Origin: Ignavibacteriota bacterium
Lineage (GTDB): Bacteria > Bacteroidota > Ignavibacteria > Tepidaquicellales > Tepidaquicellaceae
NCBI GenBank assembly: GCA_020437545.1
Contig: JAGQWH010000015.1
Location: 1-39,383 of the forward strand
Length of the DNA: 39,383 nucleotides
Reading direction: 5' to 3'
Below the pieces are notes generated by a model. It worked only from the letters and a program-made list of their open reading frames with translations. It searched no databases and was not told where the DNA came from. This document shows positions 14,921 to 39,383 of the stretch, in pieces; positions within the stretch are counted from its first letter, which is position 1, and every line of letters begins with the position of its first letter. The position numbers and the translations under genes were made by a program.

Positions 14921-17275
14921 ATGGCACTAAAAGAATACAAACCGGGGACAGCTTTTCCCGGTGTAATAGGAAGGACATTTGACCAGTCTACACCTGCATG
15001 GCCAATGCCTAACCGCGCAAAAGAAGGCGCACCGAATGTTCTGTTCATCGTTCAGGATGATACAGGATTCGGACAAATGGGATGCTACGGCAGCCCGATC
15101 AAAACACCAAATATAGATGCACTTGCAAAAGAAGGTCTGCTGTTCAACAATATGCATACTACCGCATTGTGCTCTCCTACAAGATCTTGTGTACTCACAG
15201 GCAGGAATCATCATTCAAATGCAATGGCTTGTATCACCGAAGGTTCTACAGGTTATCCGGGAGCTAACGGATACATACCATTTGAAAATGGTTTTTTGTC
15301 TGAGATACTTAAAGAAAATGGTTACAATACATATGCTCTCGGAAAATGGCATTTAACACCTGCCGAACAGAATTCTGCAGCCGGACCTTATGACCGCTGG
15401 CCTCTCGGAAGAGGATTCGAAAGATATTACGGATTTCTCGGAGGCGATACTCATCAGTATTATCCTGAACTTGTATATGACAACCATCAGGTGGAACCAC
15501 CTAAAACACCTGAAGAAGGATATCATCTTACAGTAGATATAACCGATAAAGCAATGGGATTCATTGCTGACTCAAAACAAATAGCTCCGGACAAACCGTT
15601 CTTTATGTATTTCTGCCCTGGTGCCGGTCACGCTCCTCATCACGTTCCTAAAGAATGGGCTGACAAATACAAAGGTCAGTTCGATGACGGATGGGATGCA
15701 TACAGGGAAAAAGTATTTGCAAAACAAAAAGAACTTGGCATAATACCAAAAGATTCAGTTCTTTCCAGACATGATCCGGATGTTCAGCAGTGGGATTCAC
15801 TTTCTGATGACGAAAGAAAATTGTATTCAAGAATGATGGAAGTTTTTGCAGGATTCCTTGAGCATACCGATCACCAGTACGGAAGACTGTTTCAGTTCCT
15901 TAAAGATATCGGTGAATGGGACAACACACTTATCATGTTCATTTCAGACAACGGAGCAAGCGCTGAAGGCGGACCTACAGGTTCTGTTAATGAAAATAAA
16001 TTCTTCAATAATGTACCTGACAGTCTTGAGCAGAATCTCGCTGCAATAGATGACATAGGAGGACCTAAATATTATAATCATTATCCATGGGGCTGGACCT
16101 TTGCCGGTAATACTCCATTCAGAAGATGGAAACGTGAAACATACAGAGGAGGAGTGAGTGATCCGTTTATAGTTCACTGGCCAAATGGTATCAAATCCAA
16201 AGGCGAGATCCGTGAACAGTATGCACACGCAATTGACATGGTTCCGACAGTCCTTGATGCTCTTGGAATAGAAGCTCCGACTGAGATCAAAGGAACTACA
16301 CAATCACCAATTCAGGGTAACAGTTTTGCTCATGCATTCAATGACGGAAAAGCTGAAACCAAACATAAGGTTCAGTATTTTGAAATGATGGGACATCGTT
16401 CGATCTATCACGACGGATGGAGAGCGGTTTGTCCATGGCCGGGTGAATCATTCACTGAAGCGGGCATGGGATTCGGTGCGCCGATAGATGCTGCAAAACT
16501 GACAGAACTCGATGCAAATAACTGGGAGCTTTATGACCTTTCAAAAGATCCTACGGAAACAAACAACATTGCAAAAGATAACAGACCAAAGTTGATTGAA
16601 ATGGTTGCGCAGTGGTATGTGGAAGCAGGGAAATATAATGTTCTGCCGATTGACAGCAGGGGAGTCGAAAGACTTGCCGAGCCAAGACCTCAGATTGCCG
16701 GTCCAAGGACAACTTATACTTATTATCCGCTAACGCAAACTGTTCCTTCAAATGCTGCCGTGAACATTCTCAACCGCTCTCATTCTATTACTGTGGATGC
16801 TGAGATACCAAAAGGCGGAGCAGAAGGAGTATTGTTCAGTATGGGAGGATGTGACGGAGGTTACACTCTGTTTATAAAAGATAATAAACTTCAATACGGA
16901 TATAATTATGTTACTTCGGAATATTTTTATGTAAAATCCGTTGAAGATGTTCCTGAAGGACGTCATAAATTCAGATTCGAATTTGAAGTAAAAGGAAAGC
17001 CTGACTTTGCACATGGGAAAGGAACTCCGGGATCAGCGCAGCTTTATATTGATGACAAGCTGGTTGGAGACACGGAATTTCCGTATACAATACCTTTGGC
17101 ATTGGGTCTTGGTGCGGCTGCAGCAGTTGGAGCAGATCCCGGTTCACCGACCATTCCGGATTACGAACCGCCGTATGAATTTACAGGAACGATCTTTACT
17201 GCGGTAGTTGATGTCAGCGGAGATCTGATCAAAGATGATGAATCTGCATTGAAAGCGGTGATGGCTAGACAGTAG
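14921..17275 (+). CDS. Sulfatase (formylglycine-dependent, long cytosolic arylsulfatase type), copy 1
   Basis: 784 residues, no signal peptide. It hydrolyses a sulfate ester; the substrate is unknown. Metal ligands DD at 46-47 (IVQDDTGFG), the formylglycine motif CSPTR with Cys84 followed by LTGRNHH, GKWHLTP (~115-121), DNG in ISDNGASAEGG and HWPNGI are all present. The catalytic domain covers ~35-550. The last ~200 residues form a beta-rich domain (SHSITVDAEIPKGGAEGVLFSMGG... YIDDKLVG) seen in the ~780-residue AtsA/AtsD-like group. It ends in AVMARQ, as copy 2 ends in VAMARQ. No formylglycine-generating enzyme is in the window. AAAGGA precedes the ATG; a palindrome lies upstream and a hairpin terminator at 17389. 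Divergent from the SRPBCC gene. Confidence 0.93.
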   Translation: MALKEYKPGTAFPGVIGRTFDQSTPAWPMPNRAKEGAPNVLFIVQDDTGFGQMGCYGSPIKTPNIDALAKEGLLFNNMHTTALCSPTRSCVLTGRNHHSNAMACITEGSTGYPGANGYIPFENGFLSEILKENGYNTYALGKWHLTPAEQNSAAGPYDRWPLGRGFERYYGFLGGDTHQYYPELVYDNHQVEPPKTPEEGYHLTVDITDKAMGFIADSKQIAPDKPFFMYFCPGAGHAPHHVPKEWADKYKGQFDDGWDAYREKVFAKQKELGIIPKDSVLSRHDPDVQQWDSLSDDERKLYSRMMEVFAGFLEHTDHQYGRLFQFLKDIGEWDNTLIMFISDNGASAEGGPTGSVNENKFFNNVPDSLEQNLAAIDDIGGPKYYNHYPWGWTFAGNTPFRRWKRETYRGGVSDPFIVHWPNGIKSKGEIREQYAHAIDMVPTVLDALGIEAPTEIKGTTQSPIQGNSFAHAFNDGKAETKHKVQYFEMMGHRSIYHDGWRAVCPWPGESFTEAGMGFGAPIDAAKLTELDANNWELYDLSKDPTETNNIAKDNRPKLIEMVAQWYVEAGKYNVLPIDSRGVERLAEPRPQIAGPRTTYTYYPLTQTVPSNAAVNILNRSHSITVDAEIPKGGAEGVLFSMGGCDGGYTLFIKDNKLQYGYNYVTSEYFYVKSVEDVPEGRHKFRFEFEVKGKPDFAHGKGTPGSAQLYIDDKLVGDTEFPYTIPLALGLGAAAAVGADPGSPTIPDYEPPYEFTGTIFTAVVDVSGDLIKDDESALKAVMARQ

Positions 17276-17276
17276 T

Positions 17277-17487
17277 TTGATTTTGGATTTGGGATTTCGG
17301 AATTGGTCCGCCGCGGCGGATTAAAAGATTTTTGATTTTGGATCTTTGATTTTGGAATTACTTGTTTTGAATGGCAATAATAAAAATTCTCCTTCTCTTG
17401 TTTATCTGGGAAGGAGTTTTTTATTTGCGATTTGGTCCGACATGGCAGATTAAATGATTTTTGATTTTGGATCTTTGATTTTGGATT
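17277..17487 (+). repeat. GATTTTGG-type array with two ~58-base direct repeats and GC palindromes
   Basis: It starts two bases after the sulfatase stop. Two imperfect copies of a unit lie at ~17301-17359 and ~17430-17487. Each has GGTCCG...GGC-GAT palindrome DNA (perfect TCCGCCGCGGCGGA at 17307-17320, degenerate at 17436-17449) and then GATTTTTGATTTTGGATC. The terminator at 17389 lies between the copies. Confidence 0.75.
17389..17422. terminator. Hairpin terminator between convergent genes, probably bidirectional
   Basis: CTCCTTCTC (17389-17397) pairs with GGGAAGGAG (17408-17416), one G-T pair, 10-base loop, then six T on the plus strand. An A-rich stretch before the stem gives AATTTTTATT on the minus strand, so it can serve the convergent gene ending at 17609 as well. 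Confidence 0.75.
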
Positions 17488-17499
17488 TAAGATCTCAAT

Positions 17500-17596
17500 T
17501 TTACCATCGAACATCGAACATTGAACATTGAACCGCTGCGGCGAATCAATACTCAATACTCAATACTCAATACTCAATACTCAATACTCAATACTA
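17500..17596 (-). repeat. TATTGAG array and TTCAATG/TTCGATG units downstream of the minus-strand helical-repeat gene
   Basis: On the minus strand, about seven TATTGAG units (17546-17596) follow the stop at 17609. A degenerate GC palindrome (17531-17547) comes next, then four 7-base units of TTCAATG/TTCGATG type. The orientation follows the minus gene, opposite to the sulfatase's own array in the same spacer. Confidence 0.8.
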
Positions 17597-17608
17597 AAAA
17601 TCTAACAC

Positions 17609-19048
17609 CTAAACTAATTTTATTTCATTCATTTTCAAAATAATCCATTTTTTAGAAATAATAGATTTTTTCGAGAGTAAGTATTGAAGGTCATTATAAT
17701 TTTTTCGTGTAGGGCTTTGATATAATTTCAGCAATAAAGTAAAAGCTTTACAGAATTCTTTTGAATTTTGTAAGAGGAGATGTTCAGAATCACGTTCTTT
17801 TCTGAGATATTCCCTGAAGTTTTTTGCTTCGTTAAAGGATTCATCGATTTTTTTTAGTTCGAACAATATTTTAAGTTTAAGCAAAGTTACATCAGAATAT
17901 AACAAATGATTTTTCTTGCTTACCTTATTCAAATGATCAAAACTCGACTGATAATTTTTCAGGCTGAAATATAATCTTGCTCTGGCTAAGGATACATAAT
18001 CATTCCTTATTTCCTCAGGAAGACAGTCTGAATAATTATTGATAAAATTTTCTACCCATTTGTGCTTTTTTAAATTTAAACCCGTAAGGACAAAGTCGCG
18101 AAACTGATTGACAGGCAAGTTTTTACTTCTGAAGTCATTCAAAAGTCCTTCCTTTAGTTTTTTATCCATTAAAAAAAACAGCTCTTCATTTGCTCCGGGT
18201 ATTGCTTTATTTACTTTTAAAATTTTTAAATTCATCAGACATATGAAATACTTTTCTCTTTTGTCATCTGAAATATCTTTAAGCTCACGAAAAAATATCT
18301 TCCTCGCTTTAAGATAATGACTGCTGTTTTGTAAGTCAGAATAACTTAGATAAGTATAATGAAGAAATCTGATGGTGTGAAAGATCTTATCCGGAAGTTC
18401 AGATGATTCTTTGAAATACTTTATAACATTTTGAATATCCAGACTACCATAAATTTTTTCGTCCATGGTTTCCGGAATCAGAGGTTTGGATTCTCTTACA
18501 GTAATCATTTCGATCAGCTTTTCAAGAATTTCTATTATGAAAAATCCATTTCTTGTAACTGATGATTTATATAATGTCTCTAAAAATTTTTCTGAATCTG
18601 AAATTAAAACTAAATGTTTGAGATAAATATTGTCAATTTGAAACAGAGTATTGTAATCATATTTAAACAGAGTATTATTTAATATTCCGTCTTTCAGGTT
18701 CTTATATTTCTGTTCAAAGGTTAACTGTAAATCTCTTTTATCATATTCTTTGAACAATAAAAATTTATGTATGAGATCATCTGATTCAATGGATTTAAGT
18801 ATCAGAAATTCATCTGCAAGTTTATGTAGCTCGGAAAATCTGTTCCATCTCGTTACATCTGATCCGGATCCTTTTAACTTCAATTTCCCGGCTTCATTCT
18901 GTTCGATTGATGATAATATTTTATTATAATTCCTTCCATTATTGTTAACTTCATTTCCAAGGAATTTCCGGAATTCAGTCTTTTCTTTTTCTGTGAAAGA
19001 ATTATAAAGTGTTAGAAATTTTATTTTCTTTTTCTGCTGTATGTTCAA
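17609..19048 (-). CDS. Helical-repeat (TPR-like) protein of unknown function, paralog A
   Basis: 479 residues, cytosolic, Lys/Leu-rich, almost all helix. The start is a TTG at 19046-19048. It is supported by alignment of MNIQQKKKIKFLTLYNSFTEKEKTEF with the ATG-started paralog at 36247-37692 (MEVKKNNKFFTIYSSLTSQEKMEF). TPR-like pairs are visible near ~345-400 (RNDYVSLARARLYFSLKNYQSSFDHLNKV, then LLKLKILFELKKIDESFNEA). Both paralogs end in a W-I/L-x-x-K-x-x-E segment. I recognise no named family. Each paralog lies on the minus strand near a sulfatase gene, so a role in that locus, perhaps as a scaffold or regulator, is possible but unproven. Confidence 0.8.
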   Translation of the reverse strand: MNIQQKKKIKFLTLYNSFTEKEKTEFRKFLGNEVNNNGRNYNKILSSIEQNEAGKLKLKGSGSDVTRWNRFSELHKLADEFLILKSIESDDLIHKFLLFKEYDKRDLQLTFEQKYKNLKDGILNNTLFKYDYNTLFQIDNIYLKHLVLISDSEKFLETLYKSSVTRNGFFIIEILEKLIEMITVRESKPLIPETMDEKIYGSLDIQNVIKYFKESSELPDKIFHTIRFLHYTYLSYSDLQNSSHYLKARKIFFRELKDISDDKREKYFICLMNLKILKVNKAIPGANEELFFLMDKKLKEGLLNDFRSKNLPVNQFRDFVLTGLNLKKHKWVENFINNYSDCLPEEIRNDYVSLARARLYFSLKNYQSSFDHLNKVSKKNHLLYSDVTLLKLKILFELKKIDESFNEAKNFREYLRKERDSEHLLLQNSKEFCKAFTLLLKLYQSPTRKNYNDLQYLLSKKSIISKKWIILKMNEIKLV

Positions 19049-19075
19049 GTGAATTTCCCGTTAAAAAAATTTATT

Positions 19076-19105
19076 CCAGATTACCAGATTACCAGATTAC
19101 CAGAT
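19076..19105. repeat. Short ATTACCAG tandem repeat (8-base period)
   Basis: About 3.75 copies of an 8-base unit, CCAGATTA repeated, within 30 bases before the TTG start at 19048. It differs in period from the 7-base arrays. Confidence 0.75.
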
Positions 19106-19311: not shown

Positions 19312-19327
19312 AATAATAATACTATAT

Positions 19328-22081
19328 ATGAGTGATTCTTTAAAAGATTTCCGGTCAGTAATAGAAGAAGCTTATCTGTACAGCTTTCCGATGATTGTAA
19401 ATTACAAAGTAATACTTGATTACAATATAAATAAAGATTCGGGACAATACAAATCGCCAATAAATCAGATAGCAAATGAAGCGCGGGTGTATACACCTGC
19501 TGATACATCCATTGTAACTCCAAACAGCGACACTCCATATTCTATGGTACAGATCGATCTTCGATCGGAACCAATGGTGATCTCAGTTCCGGAAATGGAA
19601 AAGGAAAGATACTATGATATACAGTTTGTTGATATGTACACAAATAATTATGCCTATGCCGGCAGCCGTACAACCGGTAACGGAGCAGGAAGTTTTCTTC
19701 TCGCCGGTCCGGACTGGAACGGTGAAATACCGGCCGGAATATCCAAAGTTTACAGATGCGAAACTCAGTTCAGTTTTGTAATATTCAGGACACAGTTATT
19801 TAATCCGGATGACATGGATAATGTCAGGAAAATTCAGGCGGGTTATAAACTGCAGCCTTTATCAGAATTTTCAAATACTCCGGCTCCGGTAAAAGCTCCT
19901 GAAATTGAATGGATTCCGTTTACTAAAAATGCATTTACTACTGACTTTCCGGTTTTTTTGAATTTCATACTTCAGTTTTGTCCGACTACCGGAACAGCTG
20001 CAGCAGAGATTCCGCTGAGAGAAGAGTTCAGCAGTGCAGGTATAGGAGCAGGTATGGCATTTGATTTTAACTCTCTGTCCGATGAGCAAAAAGATGATTT
20101 CACAAAGGCATTACAATCTGCTACTGCCAAAATTGATTATGCTGCAGACCATGTCGGAAATGTTGTAAACGGCTGGCAGATCGGAACTGCAACAGGAGAC
20201 AGGGAAAAATATAACGGCAACTGGGCGCTGAGAGCTGCAGCTGCTAAATTAGGAATCTATGGTAATAATGCTGAAGAAGCAGTTTATCCTTTTACAAGAT
20301 GCGATATTGACGGCGTACCGCTTGACGGTAGCAGAACAAATTACAGATTAACTTTTAAAAAAGGTCAGTTGCCTCCGGTAAATGCATTCTGGTCTATTAC
20401 AATTTATGATGGTGAAACTCAGCTTTTAATTGATAATCCCATTAACAGATATCTGATCAATTCTCCTATGCTGTCAGGATTGATAAAAAATGATGATGGA
20501 TCGATTACTATTTATATTCAGAAAGATTCACCCGGTAAAGATAAAGAATCAAACTGGTTACCTGCTCCTGATGGTCCTGTTTTTCTTGTAATGAGATTAT
20601 ACTGGCCCAAGACAGAACAGCCTTCTGTTTATCCTTTAGGTAATGGAACGTGGCAGCCGCCCGGAATCATTCCTGTTCAAAGCAATTATTCCCTCGGAGT
20701 AAAACGCTTTGGAGATAAATCAGTAGAGCTGATTGTGAGAACTGACGAAAGATATGGTCATGATGATCTGTTTCAGGGTCCAAGGGGCTGGGGATACTGG
20801 AATTATCTTGAGTATCCGAAACCTATACAAAATCCCAATCTCTGGCCAGAGATGCAGTCAACTTATTTTAAAATAGATCTAAAATTACCAAAAGGTGCCG
20901 GCATTATATTCAAAGGTACTTATCCACACTGCCGGTATTTTCAAATTGCATTATACAAAGCTCAAAATAATACCTTTGTGTCTACAGGTGAAGCTTTTGC
21001 CGGTGATGAGATTGAATCTGATCCGGGTTCGGAAAATCCTTTTGTAGTTGGAGCAAACAGACTAACGGAAAACAGAGAATTTACACTTGCTATTATTGCT
21101 GATGACAGACCTTCAGATAAAAATATGCAAAAACCAAATACTCTTTATGCGGGGACCACGGGAGATGCAATAGAATGTTTTGTAAGAATCTATCTTAATG
21201 ACAACGGTTTTGACGGGGCCGGATTAAGACCAGCATCATCTTCTCACGAAGGTACGGGATTGCCTAAGTATACAGGATTTCTTGAAGATGGTACCAGGCT
21301 TTCAGCTTCTGAGGTTGTTGAAAAATTTATGAATAGTATTCCCGTTGATACCAAGCAACCGTTTACTGCTGATCAATGGGTAAATATGGTTATTTCAAAA
21401 GACAACGATCCTTCACTTAAACCGGAGACTTCTCCTGCCAGGAATCCGCCTGTCTGGGAAAAATACTGGAATATCAATTATTCAATAATCGGTGCATTTA
21501 AATCACCTGAAGATCGCGCGAAGATCCCCTATGCCGGAGCAATGGATGGCGGCGGTGATCCAACTACACAGTATATGCTGACTTTGTTATCACGAAAATT
21601 CGGAACTGTATATGTTATGAAAGGAAAAATGCCTGAATTTCCGGATACTTTCGCCGGCAACAGCGGGAGAGGTCTTGAAATTATGCCGGAATCACAAACA
21701 CAATACTGGTCAATAGTCAGTTGTGAAGCAGCTCCGTCAGGACAAATTTATGACGGACTTTGCGACATGCAGATACCTTTGGATAAGGACAGAAATTATA
21801 CCATAGTTTTCAGCAGAAAAGAAGACCGTCCTTCAAATGCTACAATTGAAAACGGAATTGCCTGGCTTGAATGGAGTCCGAAAGGAGAAGGTCTTGATGA
21901 CCCGCGAAACAGAACTGACTTTGGAATGCTGATGATAAGAATAATGGCAAACAATCCTGAATGGAAAGAAAGACCTGATTTAATTACTAAACCCGGAATG
22001 GAAGAGTCTGTGATGGGACCGTATTATCCTGTTGGAGAATATACCAGTAAAGAGGATTTTGAGGCTGATGATATTAAGTAG
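19328..22081 (+). CDS. DUF1254/DUF1214 protein fused to a ~490-residue beta-rich C-terminal region
   Basis: 917 residues, no signal peptide. DUF1254 covers ~12-200 (EAYLYSFPMIVNYK, then TPNSDTPYSMVQIDLRSEPMVISVPE, YYDIQFVDMYTNNYAYAG). DUF1214 covers ~310-428 (DGVPLDGSRTNYRLTFKKGQLPPVNAFWSITIYD, then VMRLYWPK). Proteins with only these two domains end near here at about 430-460 residues. This one continues for ~490 more, with two related beta-rich segments: ~515-620 (GTYPHCRYFQIALY ... REFTLAIIADDRPS) and ~745-855 (ESQTQYWSIVSCE ... RNYTIVFSRKEDRPS). The biochemical role of DUF1254/1214 is unknown. It is first in a plus-strand run of six genes ending at the terminator at 28689, and is followed by a TATTGAG array. 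Confidence 0.88.
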   Translation: MSDSLKDFRSVIEEAYLYSFPMIVNYKVILDYNINKDSGQYKSPINQIANEARVYTPADTSIVTPNSDTPYSMVQIDLRSEPMVISVPEMEKERYYDIQFVDMYTNNYAYAGSRTTGNGAGSFLLAGPDWNGEIPAGISKVYRCETQFSFVIFRTQLFNPDDMDNVRKIQAGYKLQPLSEFSNTPAPVKAPEIEWIPFTKNAFTTDFPVFLNFILQFCPTTGTAAAEIPLREEFSSAGIGAGMAFDFNSLSDEQKDDFTKALQSATAKIDYAADHVGNVVNGWQIGTATGDREKYNGNWALRAAAAKLGIYGNNAEEAVYPFTRCDIDGVPLDGSRTNYRLTFKKGQLPPVNAFWSITIYDGETQLLIDNPINRYLINSPMLSGLIKNDDGSITIYIQKDSPGKDKESNWLPAPDGPVFLVMRLYWPKTEQPSVYPLGNGTWQPPGIIPVQSNYSLGVKRFGDKSVELIVRTDERYGHDDLFQGPRGWGYWNYLEYPKPIQNPNLWPEMQSTYFKIDLKLPKGAGIIFKGTYPHCRYFQIALYKAQNNTFVSTGEAFAGDEIESDPGSENPFVVGANRLTENREFTLAIIADDRPSDKNMQKPNTLYAGTTGDAIECFVRIYLNDNGFDGAGLRPASSSHEGTGLPKYTGFLEDGTRLSASEVVEKFMNSIPVDTKQPFTADQWVNMVISKDNDPSLKPETSPARNPPVWEKYWNINYSIIGAFKSPEDRAKIPYAGAMDGGGDPTTQYMLTLLSRKFGTVYVMKGKMPEFPDTFAGNSGRGLEIMPESQTQYWSIVSCEAAPSGQIYDGLCDMQIPLDKDRNYTIVFSRKEDRPSNATIENGIAWLEWSPKGEGLDDPRNRTDFGMLMIRIMANNPEWKERPDLITKPGMEESVMGPYYPVGEYTSKEDFEADDIK

Positions 22082-22260: not shown

Positions 22261-22272
22261 TTCTAGATAATT

Positions 22273-23784
22273 ATGGAAAAGAAAATTCCCAAACCAACAA
22301 AGAATGAAATTGCCTGTAATGGTCCTATTCCTGGAGATGTTTCGTTATATGAGAAGGAATTTGAAGCATCACAGAAATTAAGTACTCCGGGATATTATAA
22401 ATCATTAAATTCAGCTGAAATAGCGGACGGACAGCGCAGCGGAATATTCCCTAATGCGTCTTTTACCGGCTCATTTACAGAAGAGAATCAGGTCTTTGCA
22501 TACAGAAGCGAAGACATATATGAAGATACTGCTTATATAATAAACCGCGAGCCGGGTGAAATTTATATAGTAGGCGGTGAATCACCTCCAATGAAAGGTA
22601 AACTACCCGCAGGACCTTATATAGCGAAAGCAGATGCAGCAACAGGGAAACAGATTTGGCGGACTTATCTGGATAACGGAAATATTTCCGGACGCTGGAT
22701 AGCAAATGCAAATCTTAACATTCACGAAAACGGTTACATAATTTTTGCCTGGGCAAACCAGTTAGTAAAAGTTGATCCTGATACAGGGAGGGTATTAAAG
22801 CAAAATTCCATTCCCACAGGGGATACGCCAATAATCGATGCAAATTTCAAACATGTTACATTTGCTCCTGACGGAACTGTGATCCTGAAAGATCAGACAC
22901 GTCCTACAGGTTGTACTTATCAGGGAACAATGGCGGTTGTAAAAGGGAAGATGGAAGGATTGAAACAAACCAATTCACATCTTGTTGCTGCTGATCCGGA
23001 CACACTCGAAATACTCGATCATATTTCATTACCGGAACCTGCTACAGCTCCTCATATTGTAACAATGTTTGAAGGGAAAATAGCAATATATATGGGTGTT
23101 GACAGCGGAGCTTTGCGTTGTTTCTGGGATGGAAAAAAGAAGAAGTTAACTTTGGATCCCTCATGGGTTATTAAACCATTGAAGGAAGGTCAGTCTGCTT
23201 GTGATGCTCCGAGTATCTTAGGGGACTGGATTATTCTTCAGACAAACGGGATTGGCAGTGATACTGTAGCATCAAGTGTCGTAGCAGTCAGTCAGAAAGA
23301 TCCTTCGAAAATGAAAGTAATATTTCCTTTCGGAGATCTGAAAAAAGGTCACTGGAGTTTTGCGCCGCCAAAAGCTACTGCTGATCCGGACAATAATTTA
23401 ATATATTCAGCTGATATGGGAATGAAAAAAGTTGCATGTATCAGCATCGATCCGAAAAGCGGGGAGATGGAAGTAAAGTATACTGTTGATGATATAACAA
23501 ATACTTTTCAGCCTTTGATCGGACCAAAAGATAAAAGAGTTCTTATACTTTCAAACATAAAACAGGATATCAAGATTGAACCTGTAAAGATCGCATTGTT
23601 TACAGCCAAATATAAAGAACAGGTAACCTGGAGAGATGCAAACACAGGCAAGATAATCGCTGAATCGGATTTCTTTGAACCGCTTACAATTAATTCATTG
23701 ATTGTACCGGGATTCGGAGGAAGATTTTATTTCCCGACTGCAAATGGGTTTATCATACTGCAGGTAGTTCCAAAGAGAAAATGA
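22273..23784 (+). CDS. Beta-propeller-like (quinoprotein/PQQ-repeat-like) protein, copy A
   Basis: 503 residues without a signal peptide. Repeating beta blades with D-x-x-T/S-G turns are visible: KADAATGKQIWRTYLDNG (~117-134), KVDPDTGRVLKQNSI (~165-179), AADPDTLEILDHISLPEP (~236-253), SIDPKSGEMEVKY (~396-408), WRDANTGKIIAESDF (~453-467). The A/D-xx-TGK-x-x-W pattern is that of PQQ-like repeats. The usual Trp-docking set and a haem site of true quinoprotein dehydrogenases are not evident, and lack of export argues against a PQQ dehydrogenase. It is followed by a closely related copy (23934-25445). Confidence 0.78.
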   Translation: MEKKIPKPTKNEIACNGPIPGDVSLYEKEFEASQKLSTPGYYKSLNSAEIADGQRSGIFPNASFTGSFTEENQVFAYRSEDIYEDTAYIINREPGEIYIVGGESPPMKGKLPAGPYIAKADAATGKQIWRTYLDNGNISGRWIANANLNIHENGYIIFAWANQLVKVDPDTGRVLKQNSIPTGDTPIIDANFKHVTFAPDGTVILKDQTRPTGCTYQGTMAVVKGKMEGLKQTNSHLVAADPDTLEILDHISLPEPATAPHIVTMFEGKIAIYMGVDSGALRCFWDGKKKKLTLDPSWVIKPLKEGQSACDAPSILGDWIILQTNGIGSDTVASSVVAVSQKDPSKMKVIFPFGDLKKGHWSFAPPKATADPDNNLIYSADMGMKKVACISIDPKSGEMEVKYTVDDITNTFQPLIGPKDKRVLILSNIKQDIKIEPVKIALFTAKYKEQVTWRDANTGKIIAESDFFEPLTINSLIVPGFGGRFYFPTANGFIILQVVPKRK

Positions 23785-23924: not shown

Positions 23925-23933
23925 TAAATAATC

Positions 23934-25445
23934 ATGGATATTAAAATTCCACCACCAACATCTAATGAAATTGCCGCAAACGGACCTATTCCCGGTGATG
24001 TTTCATTATACAGGAAAGAACTTGAGATCGCTCACAGTCTTAAAACACCCGGTTACTATTCAACATTAAACGGCGCTGAAATAGCAGATGCTGAAAGAAG
24101 CGGGTTATTTCCGGCAGCTTCATTCACAGGTTCCTTTGACGGACCAAATCAGGTATATGCTTACAGAGCTGAAACTACTTATTTAGGAGCCAGCTATATT
24201 AATAACAGAAAGCCGGGTGAGATTTACATTATAGGCGGAGATGTACCTCCGCTTATGGGTGCAATGCCGGCAGGTCCATTTATAGCAAAAGCTGATGCAG
24301 CTTCCGGTAAAGAGATCTGGAGAACTTATCTGGACAACGGAAATGTATCGGGTACATGGATAGCTAATGTAAATCTTAATATCATGCCAAATGGAAATAT
24401 TCCGATCTCCTGGGCTGATAATATAGTATTGATCGACGGAGATACAGGTGAAATATTAAAACACAATAAATTACCAAACGGCGATACTCCGGCTAAAGAT
24501 GTAAACTACAAACATCTTACTATTGCACCTGATGGAACACTCATTGTAAAAGATCAAACCAGACCTATAGGATCAAATTTACAGGGAACTATGGCTATTA
24601 TTAAAGGCATAGGTGATGGTTTAAAGCAGACGAATTCTCATATGGCAGCGGTTGATCCGGAAACATTGGAAGTCCTGGATGACATTGCCTTACCGGAACC
24701 GGCAAGCGTTCCGCATACCATTACAATGTACAATGATAAGATTGCTATATATGTAGGTGTAAACAGCGGTGGTTTACGGTATTTCTGGGATCCTGTAAAG
24801 AAAAAACTTTCTCAGGATATGAACTGGATAGCTAAGCCCATTAAAGAAGGACAAACAACTCCGGCGGCAATCAGTATCATTGGTGACTGGCTGGGATTTC
24901 AGACTAACGGTGCAGGAAGCATGACAATTGCATCTACTATTGCTGTTGTGCATAAAGATGATCCAAACAGAATGAATACAATCTTCCCGTTTGGTGATCT
25001 TCAGAAAGGTCAGTGGAGTTTCTGCCCTCCCAAACCCATGACCGATCCGGAAAACAACATGATCTATTCGACTGATATGGGAATGGGTAAAGTTGCCGGA
25101 ATAGAACTCGATCAGAAGACAGGCGAGCTAACTCCAAAATTTGTACTTGATAAAATGACAAATACATTTCAGCCGCTGATCGGACCTAAAGATAAACGCA
25201 TTATTATATTTTCAAACATAAAATTAAATGATCCTGACATGCCTGTACAGCAGGCAGTTTTCTCAGGCGCTTATACTGAACAGGTAACATGGTGTGATTC
25301 ATTAACCGGAAAGACATTAGCGGAGTCGGATTTCTTTGAGCCACTGACAATTAATTCACTTATCGTACCGGGATTCGGAGGAAGATTTTATTTTCCTACA
25401 GCTATAGGATTTCTGATATTACAGGTACTGCCCAAAAGGGATTGA
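23934..25445 (+). CDS. Beta-propeller-like (quinoprotein/PQQ-repeat-like) protein, copy B
   Basis: 503 residues, same length and colinear with copy A from the first residues (KIPPPTSNEIAANGPIPGDVSLYRKE) to the last (GFGGRFYFPTAIGFLILQVLPKRD). Blade turns are DAASGKEIWRTYLDNG, DGDTGEILKHNKLPNGDTP, DPETLEVLDDIALPEPAS and DSLTGKTLAESDF. No signal peptide. It arose by tandem duplication that included the spacer; the two proteins have since diverged clearly, most in the middle and least at the ends. Retention of two copies suggests partner or substrate specialisation, or one heteromeric complex. The stop TGA is followed by TGAGTATC, a decayed heptamer. Confidence 0.78.
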   Translation: MDIKIPPPTSNEIAANGPIPGDVSLYRKELEIAHSLKTPGYYSTLNGAEIADAERSGLFPAASFTGSFDGPNQVYAYRAETTYLGASYINNRKPGEIYIIGGDVPPLMGAMPAGPFIAKADAASGKEIWRTYLDNGNVSGTWIANVNLNIMPNGNIPISWADNIVLIDGDTGEILKHNKLPNGDTPAKDVNYKHLTIAPDGTLIVKDQTRPIGSNLQGTMAIIKGIGDGLKQTNSHMAAVDPETLEVLDDIALPEPASVPHTITMYNDKIAIYVGVNSGGLRYFWDPVKKKLSQDMNWIAKPIKEGQTTPAAISIIGDWLGFQTNGAGSMTIASTIAVVHKDDPNRMNTIFPFGDLQKGQWSFCPPKPMTDPENNMIYSTDMGMGKVAGIELDQKTGELTPKFVLDKMTNTFQPLIGPKDKRIIIFSNIKLNDPDMPVQQAVFSGAYTEQVTWCDSLTGKTLAESDFFEPLTINSLIVPGFGGRFYFPTAIGFLILQVLPKRD

Positions 25446-25527: not shown

Positions 25528-25529
25528 AA

Positions 25530-26069
25530 ATGGAAAAAAAATTATTTAACTCAATTCTTATATTGTTATGTTTCGTTTTGATTTCATGTGGCAAGGATGA
25601 AGAAAAAACTAATACTACTACTAATAATAATACCAGTTCTTCATCAGACAAGATACAATTATTGTACGTGCAGACTGCTGAGGATATCACTGTGGACTCT
25701 GTATCTAAAACTTTTCGTCTTGTAAATGTAAATCAACAGACACTATACTTTTCAGATCGCCCTGATAGAATTGCCGGTCATGAAAAGTTAGAGGATTATC
25801 TGAATAACTGGACTTCGCAGGGTGGGAAAGATAGTTTTGCCGAAGATCCTCCAAATGCATCACTTTCGGTTTATCAATCCGGAAAATCTGAGAATTCGGT
25901 TTCAGTAGTTGAGATAACCAATCCGGTCATTGATGGTAAAGATCTGGTTTACAATTACAAAGTAATAAGCGGTACAATGCCGGTTTCCGGCGGTTTAACT
26001 TCGCTTTTTATAGATTGTGTTATAGCCCCGCGCGGAGTCGGGTTAGGTCACAGAGGACCCGGAATTTAG
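25530..26069 (+). CDS. Lipoprotein of a widespread unknown family (LYFSDRPDR motif)
   Basis: 179 residues. A signal peptide with lipobox LISC (Cys20) is followed by a Thr/Asn/Ser linker, so it is a lipid-anchored envelope protein. The body carries DSVSKTFRLVNVNQQTLYFSDRPDRIAGH (~56-84), DSFAEDPPNASLSV (~101-114), VEITNPVIDGKDLVYNYKVISGTMP and a final LFIDCVIAPRG. I know this pattern from unassigned bacterial secreted proteins; function unknown. It is fourth in the DUF1254 operon, and a stem-loop overlaps its stop. It may link the cytosolic proteins before it with the outer-membrane proteins after it. Confidence 0.78.
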   Translation: MEKKLFNSILILLCFVLISCGKDEEKTNTTTNNNTSSSSDKIQLLYVQTAEDITVDSVSKTFRLVNVNQQTLYFSDRPDRIAGHEKLEDYLNNWTSQGGKDSFAEDPPNASLSVYQSGKSENSVSVVEITNPVIDGKDLVYNYKVISGTMPVSGGLTSLFIDCVIAPRGVGLGHRGPGI

Positions 26070-27960: not shown

Positions 27961-28641
27961 ATGAAAATAATTTTATTAATAATAGTATTTTGTTTTTCGA
28001 TAACCGGATTGAGTCTTTCACAATCGCTTACTCCGCTGAAATTATCGGACATCAAAAAAGAATCTTTAGAAATAGTAAATCCTGTTATTAAAGCAGGCTC
28101 TTCTGATTACAAGAAAGAATTAAGTGATCAGATATTTGTAACATATAGTTATATTCAGAATCTGGGAAATTTTAAGGATTATTACAGTGATGGACAGGGA
28201 TTTATGCTCAATTACGGTAAGTATTTTCCTAATTCTTGGTTAGCGGTTGTCCGGTCAGGATATTTCAAACAGAATTTTAAAGTTGACGTTGACTCAGGTG
28301 GATTTAATAATTTTAATTATATTCCGATTCATTTCGGTGGTAGATTTTATGTTTACAAAAATGTTTTCATGCCGTATTTTTCTTTTATGAACGGTATAAA
28401 TATAATTTCTGCTACAGATTTTGTCGGGGATGTAAATCATGATGACGAGACAACTGTTAAATATGCATTTCAGGTTGGATTTGGTTTTGATGTAAAATTC
28501 ACCAGAAATTTTGGAGTAAATGCAAGTATAAATTATAACAACAGTTTCTGGGAAGATTCAGATCCCGGAATTGGACAGGAAGGAAAAATGATGACAGGAT
28601 TTGAATATGTCGGCGGATTGGTTTATAACTTTAACAGATAA
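27961..28641 (+). CDS. Small outer-membrane beta-barrel-like protein
   Basis: 226 residues with a signal peptide (MKIILLIIVFCFSITGLSLSQ). The rest consists of alternating amphipathic strands rich in Tyr, Phe, Asn and Gly: LSDQIFVTYSYIQNLGNFKDYYSDGQGFMLNYGKYF, IPIHFGGRFYVYKNVFMPYFSFMNGI and YAFQVGFGFDVKFTRNFGVNASINYN in outline. It ends MTGFEYVGGLVYNFNR, a typical last barrel strand with a penultimate aromatic. No named family recognised. Last gene before the terminator at 28689, 16 bases after the DUF3943 gene and surely co-transcribed. Confidence 0.8.
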   Translation: MKIILLIIVFCFSITGLSLSQSLTPLKLSDIKKESLEIVNPVIKAGSSDYKKELSDQIFVTYSYIQNLGNFKDYYSDGQGFMLNYGKYFPNSWLAVVRSGYFKQNFKVDVDSGGFNNFNYIPIHFGGRFYVYKNVFMPYFSFMNGINIISATDFVGDVNHDDETTVKYAFQVGFGFDVKFTRNFGVNASINYNNSFWEDSDPGIGQEGKMMTGFEYVGGLVYNFNR

Positions 28642-29599: not shown

Positions 29600-30340
29600 A
29601 TGAAAAAATTATTATTAGTCTCATTTGTATCTTCTCTTTTTTTATTCTCTTGTGGTAACAAGAGTGAAGTAAAGCATGAAGAAAAGCAGGAGTCAAAAAA
29701 AGAAACGGAGGTCAGAAATGATGTAATGACAAAAGAACTTCAGCAGGCAAAGACCCCTGAACAGGTACTGGAAATACTCAAAACCGGAAACGCAAAATTC
29801 GTAAAAGGCGATCTTACATTTACAGATTATCCGAAACAGATAATGCAGACCTCTCAGGGTCAGTTTCCTACAGCAGTAGTTCTGTCCTGTCTTGATTCGA
29901 GAGTTCCTGTTGAGAAGGTCTTTGATCTTGGCATAGGTGATATTTTCGTAGCCAGAGTCGCCGGTAATATTATAAATCCGGATATACTTGCCAGTATGGA
30001 ATACGGATGCAAAGTAGTCGGATCAAAGTTAATTGTAGTTCTCGGTCATACCGAATGCGGCGCAGTTAAAGCAGCAATAGATGATGTAAAACTCGGAAAC
30101 ATCACCGAGCTTCTGGAAAAGATACAACCGGCTGTCGATAGCCTTTCAAAATTTGATGGGGATAAAACATCAAAGAATAAAGATTATGTGAAAAAAGTAA
30201 CTGATGAGAATGTTATTGTTGCAATTGATGAGATCAGGAAAAAAAGTCCTATCCTGAAAGAGATGGAAGAGAAAGGTGAGATACAGATCGTAGGTGGATT
30301 ATATGATGTGAGTACTGGTTCGGTTACATTTATGAAGTGA
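29600..30340 (+). CDS. Beta-class carbonic anhydrase with lipoprotein signal
   Basis: 246 residues; interconverts CO2 and bicarbonate. The zinc ligands of the beta class are present: C97-x-D99-S-R in VVLSCLDSRVP and H150-x-x-C153 in VVLGHTECGAV. The family core GIGDIFVARVAGNI and the C-terminal VGGLYDVSTGSV are also there. The start MKKLLLVSFVSSLFLFSCGNKSE is a lipoprotein signal with lipobox Cys18, followed by a Lys/Glu linker to ~45, so the enzyme should be anchored outside the inner membrane rather than cytosolic. It has its own terminator at 30365. It lies upstream of the second sulfatase with a 500-base gap, so is probably independently transcribed. Confidence 0.93.
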   Translation: MKKLLLVSFVSSLFLFSCGNKSEVKHEEKQESKKETEVRNDVMTKELQQAKTPEQVLEILKTGNAKFVKGDLTFTDYPKQIMQTSQGQFPTAVVLSCLDSRVPVEKVFDLGIGDIFVARVAGNIINPDILASMEYGCKVVGSKLIVVLGHTECGAVKAAIDDVKLGNITELLEKIQPAVDSLSKFDGDKTSKNKDYVKKVTDENVIVAIDEIRKKSPILKEMEEKGEIQIVGGLYDVSTGSVTFMK

Positions 30341-30842: not shown

Positions 30843-33218
30843 ATGAGTAAATCACATGAATTACATCGTGCCCATCTTCCGATTCCAAGCAAAAAATTCA
30901 AAGGTTACATAGCATATGACGGTAAGGATCCGGATTCAAAGTTTCCTCCGATAAAATCAGTTCACCCACCTGACGGAGCTCCTAATGTCTTATTAATTCT
31001 TATAGATGATGCGGGTTTCGGATCATCAAGCGCTTTTGGGGGTCCGTGTTATACACCTAATGCTGAGAAACTGGCTGCGGGAGGATTAAAACTCAACCGC
31101 TTTCATACAACAGCTCTTTGTTCACCAACACGTCAGGCGTTACTTACCGGCCGTAATCACCACTCTGCCGGAATGGGATGCATAACTGAAGTTGCAACAG
31201 GCGCTCCGGGATACTCTTCTGTCCTTCCCAATACTATGTCACCTCTTGCAAAGACTCTTAAACTTAACGGATATTCCACTGCACAATTTGGTAAATGTCA
31301 CGAAGTTCCTGTATGGGAAACAAGTCCGGCAGGTCCTTTCAATGCATGGCCATCAGGAGGCGGTGGTTTTGAATATTTTTACGGATTCATAGGAGGCGAA
31401 GCAAATCAATGGTATCCGACACTTTATGAAGGAACTGTTCCGGTCGAACCGGATAAAACTCCCGAAGAAGGATATCATCTTGTTGAAGATATGACTAATA
31501 AAGCGATCGCATGGGCAGGTCAGCAAAAAGCTCTTATGAGCGATAAGCCATTCTTTATGTATTTTGCTCCCGGCGCAACTCACGCTCCGCACCATGTTCC
31601 GAAAGAATGGGCTGATAAATACAAAGGAAAATTTGACGCGGGCTGGGATAAGCTCCGTGAAGAGACTTTTGCAAGACAGTTAAAATTAGGAGTTATTCCT
31701 CCTGACAGTAAATTAACGGAACGTCCTAAGGAAATCCCCGCATGGGATGATATGCCGGAAGACATGAAGCCGGTTTTAAGAAGACAGATGGAAGTGTATG
31801 CCGGTTTTATGGAATATACTGATCATCACGTTGGACGTCTTCTTGATTCACTTCAGAAAATAAATATACTAGATGATACACTGGTATATTACATAATAGG
31901 AGACAACGGCGCATCTGCTGAAGGTACTCTTAACGGCACATATAATGAGATGCTGAACTTTAACGGACTTGCCGCTCTGGAAACTCCTGAATTTCTCAAT
32001 GCAAGAATAGATAAACTTGGCGGACCTGATTCTTATAATCACTATGCTGTAGGTTGGGCTCATGCATTGAATACTCCATATCAGTGGACAAAACAGGTTG
32101 CATCACACTGGGGAGGAACAAGGAACGGTACGATCATTCACTGGCCGAATTTCATAAAAGGTAAAGGTGAATTGCGGACACAGTTCAGTCACGTAATTGA
32201 CGTAGCTCCTACTATACTTGAAGCTGCGGGTATTCCCGAGCCGATCTCGGTTGACGGAGTGCAGCAGTCTCCTATTGAAGGAGTAAGTATATTAAGTACA
32301 TTCAATGATGCAAATGCACCTGAACTGCGTGAGACTCAGTATTTTGAAATGTTCGGTAACAGAGGAATCTATCATAAAGGATGGACAGCTGTTACTAAAC
32401 ATAAAACACCATGGATTTTGATTGGTGAAAAGACACCTGCTTTTGACGATGATGTATGGGAATTGTATGATACCAATAAAGACTGGACTCAGGCAAATGA
32501 TCTCTCAAAAGATATGCCTGAGAAGCTTCATGAACTTCAGAGATTATGGCTCATGGAAGCAGTTCGATATAACGTATTACCTCTTGATGATGATATTGCT
32601 AAAAAAATGAATCCTGATACTGCAGGAAGACCTGTGCTTATCAGAGGAAATTCACAGATCCTTTTCGGAGGAATGGGAAGATTATCCGAGAATTGCGTGA
32701 TCAGTATAAAGAACAAGTCTCACTCTGTAACTGCTGAAATAGTGGTTCCGGAAAAAGACGCAGAAGGAGTTATAATTGCTCAGGGTGCGAACATAGGTGG
32801 CTGGAGTCTTTATGCGAAAGACGGTAAACTAAAATACTGTTACAATCTCGGAGGAATAAATTACTATTATGTAGAATCTGCTAACAAAATACCTTCAGGA
32901 CAGCATCAGGTGCGAATGGAATTCACTTATGCCGGCGGAGGGCTTGGTAAAGGCGGTAAAGTAGCATTGTTTATCGACGGTAAGCAAGACGGAGAGGGCG
33001 ATGTAGACATGACACAGTCAATGGTTTTCTCAGCAGATGATGGTTGTGATGTAGGTGAAGACACCGGAGCTCCCGTTTCACAGGATTACGGTCCGTTGGG
33101 AAATGGTTTCAATGGAGAGGTAAAAGGTGTTCAGATAGCAATTGCGGATGATGCAAATAATTCGGATCACCTTGTTGATCCCGAGGATGCATTGCGTGTA
33201 GCCATGGCAAGACAGTAA
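30843..33218 (+). CDS. Sulfatase (formylglycine-dependent, long cytosolic arylsulfatase type), copy 2
   Basis: 791 residues, no signal peptide. Metal ligands DD at 55-56 (LIDDAGFG), formylglycine motif CSPTR with Cys93, LTGRNHH, GKCHEVP (where copy 1 has GKWHLTP), THAPHHVPKEWADKYKGKFD, GDNGASAEGTLNG and HWPNFI are in place. The C-terminal ~190-residue beta domain (SHSVTAEIVVPEKDAEGVIIAQG ... FIDGKQDGEG) and the end VAMARQ match copy 1. The GKxHxVP form, shared with copy 3 (GKNHNVP), separates copies 2 and 3 from copy 1 and suggests a different substrate. It is a single transcription unit with a strong terminator at 33250. Confidence 0.93.
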   Translation: MSKSHELHRAHLPIPSKKFKGYIAYDGKDPDSKFPPIKSVHPPDGAPNVLLILIDDAGFGSSSAFGGPCYTPNAEKLAAGGLKLNRFHTTALCSPTRQALLTGRNHHSAGMGCITEVATGAPGYSSVLPNTMSPLAKTLKLNGYSTAQFGKCHEVPVWETSPAGPFNAWPSGGGGFEYFYGFIGGEANQWYPTLYEGTVPVEPDKTPEEGYHLVEDMTNKAIAWAGQQKALMSDKPFFMYFAPGATHAPHHVPKEWADKYKGKFDAGWDKLREETFARQLKLGVIPPDSKLTERPKEIPAWDDMPEDMKPVLRRQMEVYAGFMEYTDHHVGRLLDSLQKINILDDTLVYYIIGDNGASAEGTLNGTYNEMLNFNGLAALETPEFLNARIDKLGGPDSYNHYAVGWAHALNTPYQWTKQVASHWGGTRNGTIIHWPNFIKGKGELRTQFSHVIDVAPTILEAAGIPEPISVDGVQQSPIEGVSILSTFNDANAPELRETQYFEMFGNRGIYHKGWTAVTKHKTPWILIGEKTPAFDDDVWELYDTNKDWTQANDLSKDMPEKLHELQRLWLMEAVRYNVLPLDDDIAKKMNPDTAGRPVLIRGNSQILFGGMGRLSENCVISIKNKSHSVTAEIVVPEKDAEGVIIAQGANIGGWSLYAKDGKLKYCYNLGGINYYYVESANKIPSGQHQVRMEFTYAGGGLGKGGKVALFIDGKQDGEGDVDMTQSMVFSADDGCDVGEDTGAPVSQDYGPLGNGFNGEVKGVQIAIADDANNSDHLVDPEDALRVAMARQ

Positions 33219-35775: not shown

Positions 35776-36219
35776 ATGCAAAGATTATTACTTCTTACTG
35801 CTGTATTAATTACAGTTCAAGTCTTTTTTACAGGATGCTCCGGAAGTGATCCTGAACCCGAACTGATCACTGAATCCGTATTGATAGATAAGATCGCAAA
35901 ATCAACCGGAATAACAAGAAGTCAGGCGCAGATAGGATTAAGCGCATTAATGATGCTTTCAGAGGAAAAACTTACCGCTGATGAATTCGCAAAACTCACC
36001 ACCGAACTTCCGGGCGGAGTCAGTCTTTTTAATTTTGCCGCCGATCTGGGTTTTACCAAAGGATCAATAAATACCCAGGCTGATATAGTTCAGATACTTG
36101 TCAATTTAGGAGTTAATCCGGTGGATGCAGGTAAATTCTTGACCACTGTTTTAAGTGTTTCAAAGAATATTGAAGGCGGAGCTTTCGGTTTACTTTCTAA
36201 AGTTTATGAAAACAGGTAA
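35776..36219 (+). CDS. DUF2780-like lipoprotein, copy 1
   Basis: 147 residues with lipobox FTGC (Cys21). The mature part has the DUF2780 pattern: an N-terminal helix pair (LIDKIAKSTGITRSQAQIGLSALMMLSEEKLTADEFAKLTTELPG), a middle Gly/Thr turn, then LVNLGVNPVDAGKFLTTVLSVSKNIEGG and a final LLSKVYENR. The family is of unknown function and found in many Gram-negative envelopes. Paralog of 37898-38335, sharing length, the TGCSGS lipobox start, and the element upstream. Convergent with helical-repeat paralog B, 27 bases away. Confidence 0.82.
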   Translation: MQRLLLLTAVLITVQVFFTGCSGSDPEPELITESVLIDKIAKSTGITRSQAQIGLSALMMLSEEKLTADEFAKLTTELPGGVSLFNFAADLGFTKGSINTQADIVQILVNLGVNPVDAGKFLTTVLSVSKNIEGGAFGLLSKVYENR

Positions 36220-37897: not shown

Positions 37898-38335
37898 ATG
37901 CGAAAAATCATTTCAACAGCTTCATTATTTATTTTAACTTTGGTTTTTTTAACCGGCTGTTCCGGAAGTAAAAAGACAACCGAAGCAATCACACAATCTG
38001 GTATGGTCAACCAGTTATCCAAAGAGCTTGGTATGACAAAAGATCAGACAGAGGCAGGTCTTGGCGCAATTATGATGTTGTCCAAAGATAAACTTTCTCC
38101 GGACGATTTTTCAAAATTAAGCAAAGGAATTCCGGGCGGAACATCAAGTCTTATCAGTGAGGCAACAAAGCTTGGAGTAGTGCCCGGTTCTGTAAGTTCT
38201 ACAGCAGATGTAATATCAGTTCTAACCAAACTTGGAGTCAGCCCCGTTCAGGCAGCTAAATTCTCAGCTTCAGTTTTAAAATTTGCAGGTAGTCTCGGAG
38301 GAAGTACTCTCGGACTTTTATCCAAAGTGCTATAA
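37898..38335 (+). CDS. DUF2780-like lipoprotein, copy 2
   Basis: 145 residues with lipobox LTGC (Cys21), then SGSKK. The mature part aligns with copy 1 throughout: QLSKELGMTKDQTEAGLGAIMMLSKDKLSPDDFSKLSKGIPGG and LTKLGVSPVQAAKFSASVLKFAGSLGGSTLGLLSKVL in outline, i.e. the full DUF2780 length. Envelope lipoprotein of unknown function. It precedes the third sulfatase on the same strand by 127 bases, so the two may be co-transcribed; no strong terminator separates them. Confidence 0.83.
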   Translation: MRKIISTASLFILTLVFLTGCSGSKKTTEAITQSGMVNQLSKELGMTKDQTEAGLGAIMMLSKDKLSPDDFSKLSKGIPGGTSSLISEATKLGVVPGSVSSTADVISVLTKLGVSPVQAAKFSASVLKFAGSLGGSTLGLLSKVL

Positions 38336-38462
38336 TTATATTTTTAAATCTTAAAATTATAATTTCAAAACCAGGATATAAAAGATCCATTCGGATTATA
38401 TTTTTTTATAATTCACAATTACATTCTATTAATCAAACCCAATACAACAGAAAGGAATTTAT

Positions 38463-39383
38463 ATGTCAGAAAAAAAATTCAAAGGCGTTATTAAACTGGA
38501 CGTCAGGGATTCAACACCCGATTGGGGACCGTATACTCCTCCCAGAGCACCCGAAGGTTCACCGAATGTTCTGTTTGTACTTTATGATGACACAGGACTT
38601 GCAGCATGGTCACCATTCGGAGGAAAGATAAACATGCCGACACTGCAAAGACTTGCAGATGACGGTTTAATGTATTCACAATGGCATACAACAGCTTTAT
38701 GTTCACCTACAAGATCTACTTTACTTACAGGAAGAAATCATCACCTTACCGGAAATGCATGCATAACGGAAGGAGCAAACGGATTCCCGGGAGCTCACGG
38801 AAGAATACCTGATCAGTGCGCAACTATAGGTCAGATCCTTCAGGATGCAGGCTGGAGCACTTTCTGGCTGGGCAAGAATCATAACGTTCCGGAGCAGGAT
38901 ATAGCTTCAGGCGCAAGCCGGAAGCAGTGGCCTTTGTCAAAAGGATTTGACAGATACTATGGCTTTCTCGGCGGTGAGACAAATCAGTGGTATCCGGACC
39001 TTGTAGAGGATAATCATTTTACTGAACAGCCGTACAGTCCTGAAGAAGGTTATCATCTTTCAAAAGATCTTGCAGATAAAGCAATATCTTTTATTCAGGA
39101 TCAGAAGGCGAGCAATCCTTCAAAGCCATGGTATATGTGGTTCTGTCCGGGAGCTAATCACGCTCCTCATCATTCGCCGCAGGAATACATTGATAAGTAC
39201 AAAGGTAAATTTGATGACGGATATGAAGCTTACAGGGAATGGGTATTGCCGCGTATGATAGAAAAAGGAATAATACCTGAGGGTACAAAACTTACTCCTA
39301 TCAATCCGTTGCCTGAGTCAATTTCAAGTCCGGGAGATATGGTAAGACCCTGGGATACGCTTAATGCAGATGAAAAGAAATTG
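38463..39383 (+). CDS. Sulfatase (formylglycine-dependent, long cytosolic arylsulfatase type), copy 3, 3' end beyond window
   Basis: 307 codons open to the right edge; the start ATG is at 38463 with GAAAGGA about 6 bases upstream. No signal peptide. Metal ligands DD at 42-43 (LYDDTGLAAW), formylglycine motif CSPTR with Cys80, LTGRNHH, GKNHNVPEQD, FDRYYGFLGGETNQWYPDL and ANHAPHHSPQEYIDKYKGKFDDGYEAYREW are in place. Closer in motif style to copy 2 than to copy 1. The rest, including the C-terminal beta domain, should lie beyond the window; expected total ~780 residues. Confidence 0.92.
   Translation, partial: MSEKKFKGVIKLDVRDSTPDWGPYTPPRAPEGSPNVLFVLYDDTGLAAWSPFGGKINMPTLQRLADDGLMYSQWHTTALCSPTRSTLLTGRNHHLTGNACITEGANGFPGAHGRIPDQCATIGQILQDAGWSTFWLGKNHNVPEQDIASGASRKQWPLSKGFDRYYGFLGGETNQWYPDLVEDNHFTEQPYSPEEGYHLSKDLADKAISFIQDQKASNPSKPWYMWFCPGANHAPHHSPQEYIDKYKGKFDDGYEAYREWVLPRMIEKGIIPEGTKLTPINPLPESISSPGDMVRPWDTLNADEKKL

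What the first reader, a model, noticed from the sequence alone, without database searches (positions are those of the whole stretch)
14921..39383. Locus of cytosolic sulfatases with a DUF1254/1214 protein, paired propellers and outer-membrane proteins
Three long sulfatases without export signals surround an operon of a DUF1254/DUF1214 fusion, two propeller-like proteins (all without signals), a lipoprotein, and two outer-membrane proteins. Split by location, this looks like an import route plus cytosolic processing of a sulfated organic compound, unlike polysaccharide loci, which use periplasmic sulfatases with SusC/D. No SusC/D, glycosidase or formylglycine-generating enzyme is in the window. 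The combination is not a system I know by name.
Basis: inference. Interest (0 to 1): 0.6.

Follow-up and report, generated by a model that had tools for sequence, protein, structure and literature searches.

The report
Sulfatase island with DUF1254 partner proteins
A sewage-type Ignavibacteria bacterium carries a cluster of enzymes that clip sulfate off small molecules inside the cell, with an imported set of unknown-function (DUF1254/1214 and propeller) proteins inserted among them; in other bacteria DUF1254/1214 proteins travel with such sulfatases and even share the same cell-wall address tag, which points to a first testable role for a widespread protein family of unknown function.

Summary
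The window is contig C66 of an Ignavibacteria MAG. It has three long FGly-type sulfatases without export signals (the third cut by the contig end), a 917-aa DUF1254/DUF1214 fusion, two BamB-like propellers, a lipoprotein and two envelope proteins. The island continues on contig C418 with three more sulfatases, a Phenol_MetA_deg porin and an SBF-type symporter. A true FGE is elsewhere in the genome (C133), beside another DUF1254 gene.

The locus is composite. Two same-genus species have SULF1 directly beside DUF3943. hypA, the fusion, both propellers and the lipoprotein (about 17294-26146) are an insertion. The fusion/propeller set recurs at 53-67% identity in other phyla, where fusions have signal peptides and propellers membrane anchors; the window copies have neither.

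DUF1254 genes sit near sulfatases far above chance: 20 of 80 loci against 2.4 expected. In four proteobacterial genomes all 13 proteins bearing one leader+LysM module are sulfatases (7) or DUF1254/1214 proteins (6).

Best reading: an organosulfate-desulfating island whose inserted module is a sulfatase partner system, here moved to the cytosol. The linkage is shown. The biochemical role and substrate are inferred.

The parts
14921..17275 (+). SULF1, long S1-type (FGly) sulfatase, 784 aa, no export signal
   Evidence: PF00884 E 1.9e-69; CSPTR motif; nearest solved relatives 7all and P. aeruginosa AtsA 1hdh/4cxk; 93% ortholog in sister contig C244
17294..26146 (.). inserted segment: DNA similarity to sister contig C244 stops at 17293 and resumes at 26147
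   Evidence: blastn window vs C244; same empty junction in G001
17609..19048 (-). hypA, 479 aa, member of a 28-copy paralog family of unknown function
   Evidence: no Pfam; own-genome search
19328..22081 (+). DUF1254-DUF1214 fusion, 917 aa; no signal peptide here, signal peptide in all six relatives with a complete 5' end
   Evidence: Pfam; alignment A1; N half like 3u07/2p3y
22273..23784 (+). PROP1, BamB/PQQ-like beta-propeller, no TM anchor here
   Evidence: alignment A2, model and Foldseek, upstream stop
23934..25445 (+). PROP2, tandem paralog of PROP1 (65% identity)
25530..26069 (+). LIPO, small lipoprotein; homologs accompany DUF1254 genes in other phyla
26229..27944 (+). DUF3943 envelope protein with signal peptide, resident locus
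   Evidence: PF13084 E 4.8e-31; 84-85% orthologs beside SULF1 in C244 and G001
27961..28641 (+). small outer-membrane barrel, resident locus
   Evidence: weak OMP_b-brl match below cut-off; 85-88% orthologs
29600..30340 (+). beta-carbonic anhydrase with lipoprotein signal, resident locus
   Evidence: PF00484 E 7e-43; NF011765 above cut-off; 91% ortholog
30843..33218 (+). SULF2, long S1-type sulfatase, 791 aa, no export signal
   Evidence: PF00884 E 2.6e-63; 92% ortholog
35776..36219 (+). DUF2780 lipoprotein a
   Evidence: all 5 DUF2780 copies of the genome are on sulfatase contigs
37898..38335 (+). DUF2780 lipoprotein b
38463..39383 (+). SULF3, sulfatase truncated by contig end; remainder at C418:3-1163 after an estimated gap of about 240 bp
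   Evidence: lengths against the 775-aa paralog at C418:13170

Best explanation
The locus is an organosulfate-desulfating island. Small sulfate esters enter through outer-membrane barrels (DUF3943/OMP, Phenol_MetA_deg) and probably an SBF-type symporter. They are hydrolysed in the cytosol by six long, FGE-activated sulfatases. Into this island a transferable DUF1254/DUF1214-fusion + twin-propeller + lipoprotein module was inserted. In other bacteria DUF1254/1214 proteins are exported, tethered partners of sulfatases, and the fusion and propellers are exported too; here the fusion and both propellers lost their export signals and so share the cytosol with the resident sulfatases. The most likely role of the fusion and propellers is to bind and present the hydrophobic or aromatic sulfate ester to the sulfatase, or to take up its desulfated product. 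Shown: gene content, insertion, linkage, shared address module, loss of signals. Inferred: import route, physical partnership, substrate class, biochemical role.
For: Sulfatase within the flanks of 20 of 80 DUF1254 loci against 2.4 expected from each genome's own sulfatase count; in Competibacter L019 the genome's only sulfatase is about 3 kb upstream of the fusion gene. FGE also lies in several DUF1254 loci (L059, L060, L063, L066, L069, L080, L081, L088). All 13 leader+LysM proteins in four genomes are sulfatase or DUF1254/1214, including copies on other contigs. Fusion-PROP order conserved in Thermodesulfobacteriota, Verrucomicrobiota and Pseudomonadota. Empty site in two sister species. 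Fusion 6/6 and propellers 11/11 exported elsewhere, 0/3 here. SBF symporter and Phenol_MetA_deg porin in the island.
Against: The sister species keep the sulfatases without the module, so it is dispensable for them. LIPO keeps its lipoprotein signal. The DUF1254 beside the FGE in this genome is a lipoprotein although its neighbouring sulfatases lack signals. Sulfatases near the module elsewhere belong to another clade than SULF1/SULF2, and in L017, L020 and L023 no sulfatase lies within the available flank. No activity, expression or binding data exist.
Confidence: 0.48

Rival explanations
1. Genomic hitch-hiking: DUF1254/1214 modules and sulfatases are both accessory genes of wastewater and soil bacteria and collect in the same islands without working together.
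For: Many source MAGs look like activated sludge or wastewater by record title; most DUF1254 loci (60 of 80) have no sulfatase nearby; sister species lack the module.
Against: One leader+LysM module is confined to these two families in four genomes, also at separate loci; linkage spans several phyla and several sulfatase clades.
Confidence: 0.25
2. Sulfated-polysaccharide or EPS locus: the sulfatases trim sulfated glycans, and the DUF3943/OMP proteins replace SusC/D.
For: Many S1 sulfatases act on glycans (own knowledge); PF16347 (SGSH_C) matches in the sulfatases.
Against: No glycosidase, lyase or SusC-sized ORF among the C66 genes scanned, and no SusC-sized ORF in C418; sulfatases without signals; nearest solved relatives include the arylsulfatase AtsA.
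Confidence: 0.12
3. The inserted module is a non-functional or re-purposed remnant that lost its export signals through decay.
For: All three proteins lost their leaders; the fusion has 53 unique changes at otherwise invariant columns, against 2-23 in its relatives.
Against: Full-length intact ORFs; propellers show only 5-8 such changes, inside the range of relatives (1-23); GC3 like resident genes.
Confidence: 0.1

Closest known systems
Pseudomonas aeruginosa atsA/atsRBC sulfate-ester locus (own knowledge; AtsA structure 1hdh)
   Same: Signal-less FGly sulfatase related to SULF1; import then cytosolic desulfation
   Different: ats uses an ABC importer, none seen in the island part of C66/C418; no DUF1254, propellers or multiple sulfatases
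Sulfatase-rich polysaccharide utilisation loci (SusC/D PULs)
   Same: Several S1 sulfatases clustered with outer-membrane proteins
   Different: No SusC/D or glycan hydrolases, and sulfatases without export signals
DUF1254/DUF1214 (VPA0735-like) proteins, solved as 3u07, 2p3y, 3vb9
   Same: N half of the fusion
   Different: 917-aa fusion with an unassigned C half; cytosolic; next to sulfatases; the solved proteins have no reported function that I found
BamB / PQQ-dependent dehydrogenase propellers
   Same: Fold
   Different: About 12% identity, PF13360 below cut-off, TM-anchored relatives, found with the fusion

Membership tests
S1 formylglycine sulfatases | PF00884 fold and C-x-P-x-R maturation motif | tested here: met
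S1 formylglycine sulfatases | maturation enzyme (FGE with CxxxxC) encoded in the genome | tested here: met
   C133:1854-2771, E 2.4e-80, sequence with CAPNYCLRYRPAAR
S1_4 subfamily (SulfAtlas) | closest to P. aeruginosa AtsA | tested here: inconclusive
   AtsA and 7all are the best PDB hits, AtsA is listed as S1_4 in PMC5066984; SulfAtlas itself was not available
Polysaccharide utilisation locus | SusC/SusD pair and glycoside hydrolases | tested here: not met
   no SusC-sized ORF in C66/C418, no such Pfam in the C66 genes scanned
ats-type sulfate-ester locus | dedicated ABC importer beside the sulfatase | tested here: not met
   C66 genes scanned with Pfam and gene list of C418:1-20000 by sequence and partial Pfam scan
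DUF1254/DUF1214 family | both Pfam domains above gathering score | tested here: met
   162 and 127 bits
BamB | PF13360 above cut-off and BAM-complex role | tested here: not met
   21.7 bits against 27.6; fold similarity only
Sulfatase-partner module | physical or functional interaction with a sulfatase | not testable with these tools
   only genomic linkage and a shared leader

The most novel reading that the evidence does not exclude
DUF1254/DUF1214 proteins are a general accessory family of S1 sulfatases (substrate- or product-binding partners). They are tethered beside exported sulfatases in many phyla, and in this Ignavibacterium a whole fusion+propeller set was moved to the cytosol to serve cytosolic sulfatases.
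Probability: 0.35. Interest if true: 0.75.

Novelty: new variant of a known kind. Interest (0 to 1): 0.52.

Why it matters
DUF1254/DUF1214 is a widespread family with several solved structures and no known function that I could find (only passing mentions in the open-access papers held). The sulfatase linkage and the shared leader+LysM module give it a first concrete, testable role. Many source organisms appear to come from wastewater, so the system may matter for removal of sulfated steroids, surfactants or aromatics there. The fusion and twin propellers losing their export signals together would be an informative case of pathway relocation.

Tried and rejected
Three DUF1214-like repeats in the C half of the fusion, seen by eye, got no support from hhalign (probabilities below 1%). 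The AlphaFold model of the fusion is poor (pLDDT 57), so its C half stays unassigned. PQQ-enzyme identity for the propellers: no family match above cut-off and no conserved cysteine pair. Mis-binning of the module was considered and rejected: GC3 matches resident genes, and the genome's own 7-bp intergenic repeats (56+86 exact matches genome-wide) lie between the module's genes. Start-codon error as the cause of missing signals was rejected. The first linkage count (17 of 43) used a hand-picked subset, so it was repeated on all 80 loci. Treating 80 loci as independent overstates the P value, because several Bradyrhizobium and Competibacter-like loci are related. Literature searches for DUF1254 with sulfatase found nothing. 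hypA/hypB as a sulfatase-specific regulator: 28 copies in the genome, many not on sulfatase contigs.

Full report
What is there. The window is the whole contig C66 of a 4.29-Mb, 429-contig MAG. Pfam confirms SULF1 (14921-17275), SULF2 (30843-33218) and the start of SULF3 (38463 to the contig end) as PF00884 sulfatases with CSPTR motifs. It also confirms a DUF1254+DUF1214 fusion (19328-22081), the DUF3943 protein, a weak OMP barrel, a beta-carbonic anhydrase with a lipoprotein signal, and two DUF2780 lipoproteins. The twin 503-aa proteins are propellers: the PROP1 model (pLDDT 77) matches BamB, PQQ dehydrogenases and tetrathionate hydrolase. The organism belongs to Ignavibacteria: locus L069 (record title 'uncultured Ignavibacteria') lies in the sister genome that is collinear with the window, and L063 ('Ignavibacteria', isolate Gw_SlAct) carries the same FGE-DUF1254 pair at 94% and 84% identity.

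The island is bigger than the window. C418 begins with the missing end of a SULF3-type sulfatase. Against the 775-aa paralog at C418:13170, 307 and 387 residues are present, so about 81 residues (about 240 bp) are missing between the contigs. C418 then carries sulfatases at 4097, 8040 and 13170, a Phenol_MetA_deg porin (7015) and an SBF-family symporter (10478). The SBF protein's only PDB hits are weak matches to a bacterial transporter, 3zuy/3zux/8oyf (E 0.012 and above), so its substrate is open. The sister contig G378:C244 shows the same order in one piece. The genome has 13 PF00884 matches and a true FGE at C133, whose sequence contains CAPNYCLRYRPAAR. That FGE lies next to a lipoprotein DUF1254 gene and near two further sulfatases.

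The locus is composite. Nucleotide similarity to C244 stops at 17293 and resumes at 26147. In C244, and in a third species of the genus (G001:C433), SULF1 is directly followed by DUF3943. So hypA, the fusion, PROP1, PROP2 and LIPO form an insertion of about 8.9 kb, although two independent losses cannot be excluded. The propellers occur in no other genome among 297 searched in the phylum, and same-genus genomes hold only short DUF1254 genes. The nearest relatives are in Thermodesulfobacteriota, Verrucomicrobiota and Pseudomonadota, at 61-67% identity for the fusion and 53-63% for PROP1. The module's GC3 equals that of resident genes, and its spacers hold the genome's own 7-bp repeats. It is therefore not recent foreign DNA or a binning error.

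Compartment. All six fusion relatives with a complete 5' end have a signal peptide, and all eleven propeller relatives have an N-terminal membrane anchor (hydrophobicity scan and reading of the sequences, no dedicated signal-peptide predictor was available). The window's fusion and both propellers have neither, and in-frame stops close off any extension. The resident sulfatases also lack signals, whereas an exported-type sulfatase exists in the same genome at C107 (lipoprotein-like N-terminus). In the tree the C107 enzyme, not SULF1/SULF2, groups with the exported sulfatases next to DUF1254 in Competibacter, Gemmatimonadota and Roseobacteraceae. A second DUF1254 gene of this genome (C25) also starts without a signal, as do those of two other genomes of the family (L103, L106), so signal loss in DUF1254 is not unique to the fusion.

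Linkage of DUF1254 with sulfatases. In 20 of 80 DUF1254 loci found in GTDB genomes, a sulfatase lies inside the fetched flanks, against 2.4 expected from each genome's own sulfatase count (P about 7e-14 if independent). FGE is present in several of these loci and a few more. The 3.6-Mb genome of L019 has one sulfatase, and it is about 3 kb upstream of the fusion gene. An independent test: the signal-plus-LysM leader shared by L018/L019 proteins (Pfam LysM) was searched through four genomes. All 13 matches are on sulfatases (7) or DUF1254/1214 proteins (6), including copies on other contigs. This suggests both families are addressed to the same place in the envelope.

Mechanism. I propose import of small sulfate esters and cytosolic hydrolysis by FGE-activated sulfatases, with the inserted fusion/propellers acting as a substrate- or product-binding partner. 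The pairing rests on linkage and the shared leader. The role and the substrate class rest on inference (porin, SBF and, in L016, MlaE/MlaD-type transport genes). Main cautions: sister species manage without the module; LIPO stays exported; three of the genomes with propellers (L017, L020, L023) have no sulfatase in the available flank; there are no experiments.

Verdict. The sulfatase side is ordinary in kind. The new part is the DUF1254/1214-sulfatase association and the apparently relocated fusion/propeller module.

Noticed in passing
35776-36219 and 37898-38335; C418:3674, C418:18534, C25:7999: All five DUF2780 (VcgC/VcgE) lipoprotein genes of the genome lie on contigs with sulfatases; two are directly upstream of a sulfatase and three are paired divergently with a hyp gene.
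   Followed up: partly
17609-19048 and 36247-37692: hypA/hypB belong to a family of about 28 paralogs (480-500 aa, no Pfam) in the genome; several lie divergent to sulfatase genes.
   Followed up: partly
13932-14037, 17546-17595, 22072-22119, 22174-22257, 23782-23833, 23856-23920: 7-bp tandem repeats (TTGAGTA, TTCAACT) fill intergenic spacers here and, for TTGAGTA, across the genome; function unknown.
   Followed up: partly
29600-30340: Beta-carbonic anhydrase with a lipoprotein signal, conserved (91%) between OMP and SULF2 in the sister species; why it sits in a sulfatase island is unexplained.
   Followed up: no
L156:3063-7821 (C25): Broken sulfatase remnant beside a signal-less DUF1254 gene, a short DUF1254/1214 gene and an amidohydrolase.
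   Followed up: partly
L016:3467-8378: In a Syntrophobacterales MAG an MscS channel and a complete MlaE/ABC/MlaD/auxiliary lipoprotein set lie between a short DUF1254 gene and the fusion.
   Followed up: no
1132-8175: Very large (2347 aa) histidine kinase-type protein; a second gene fragment at 1-925 shares a 79%-identical stretch of 145 aa with it.
   Followed up: no
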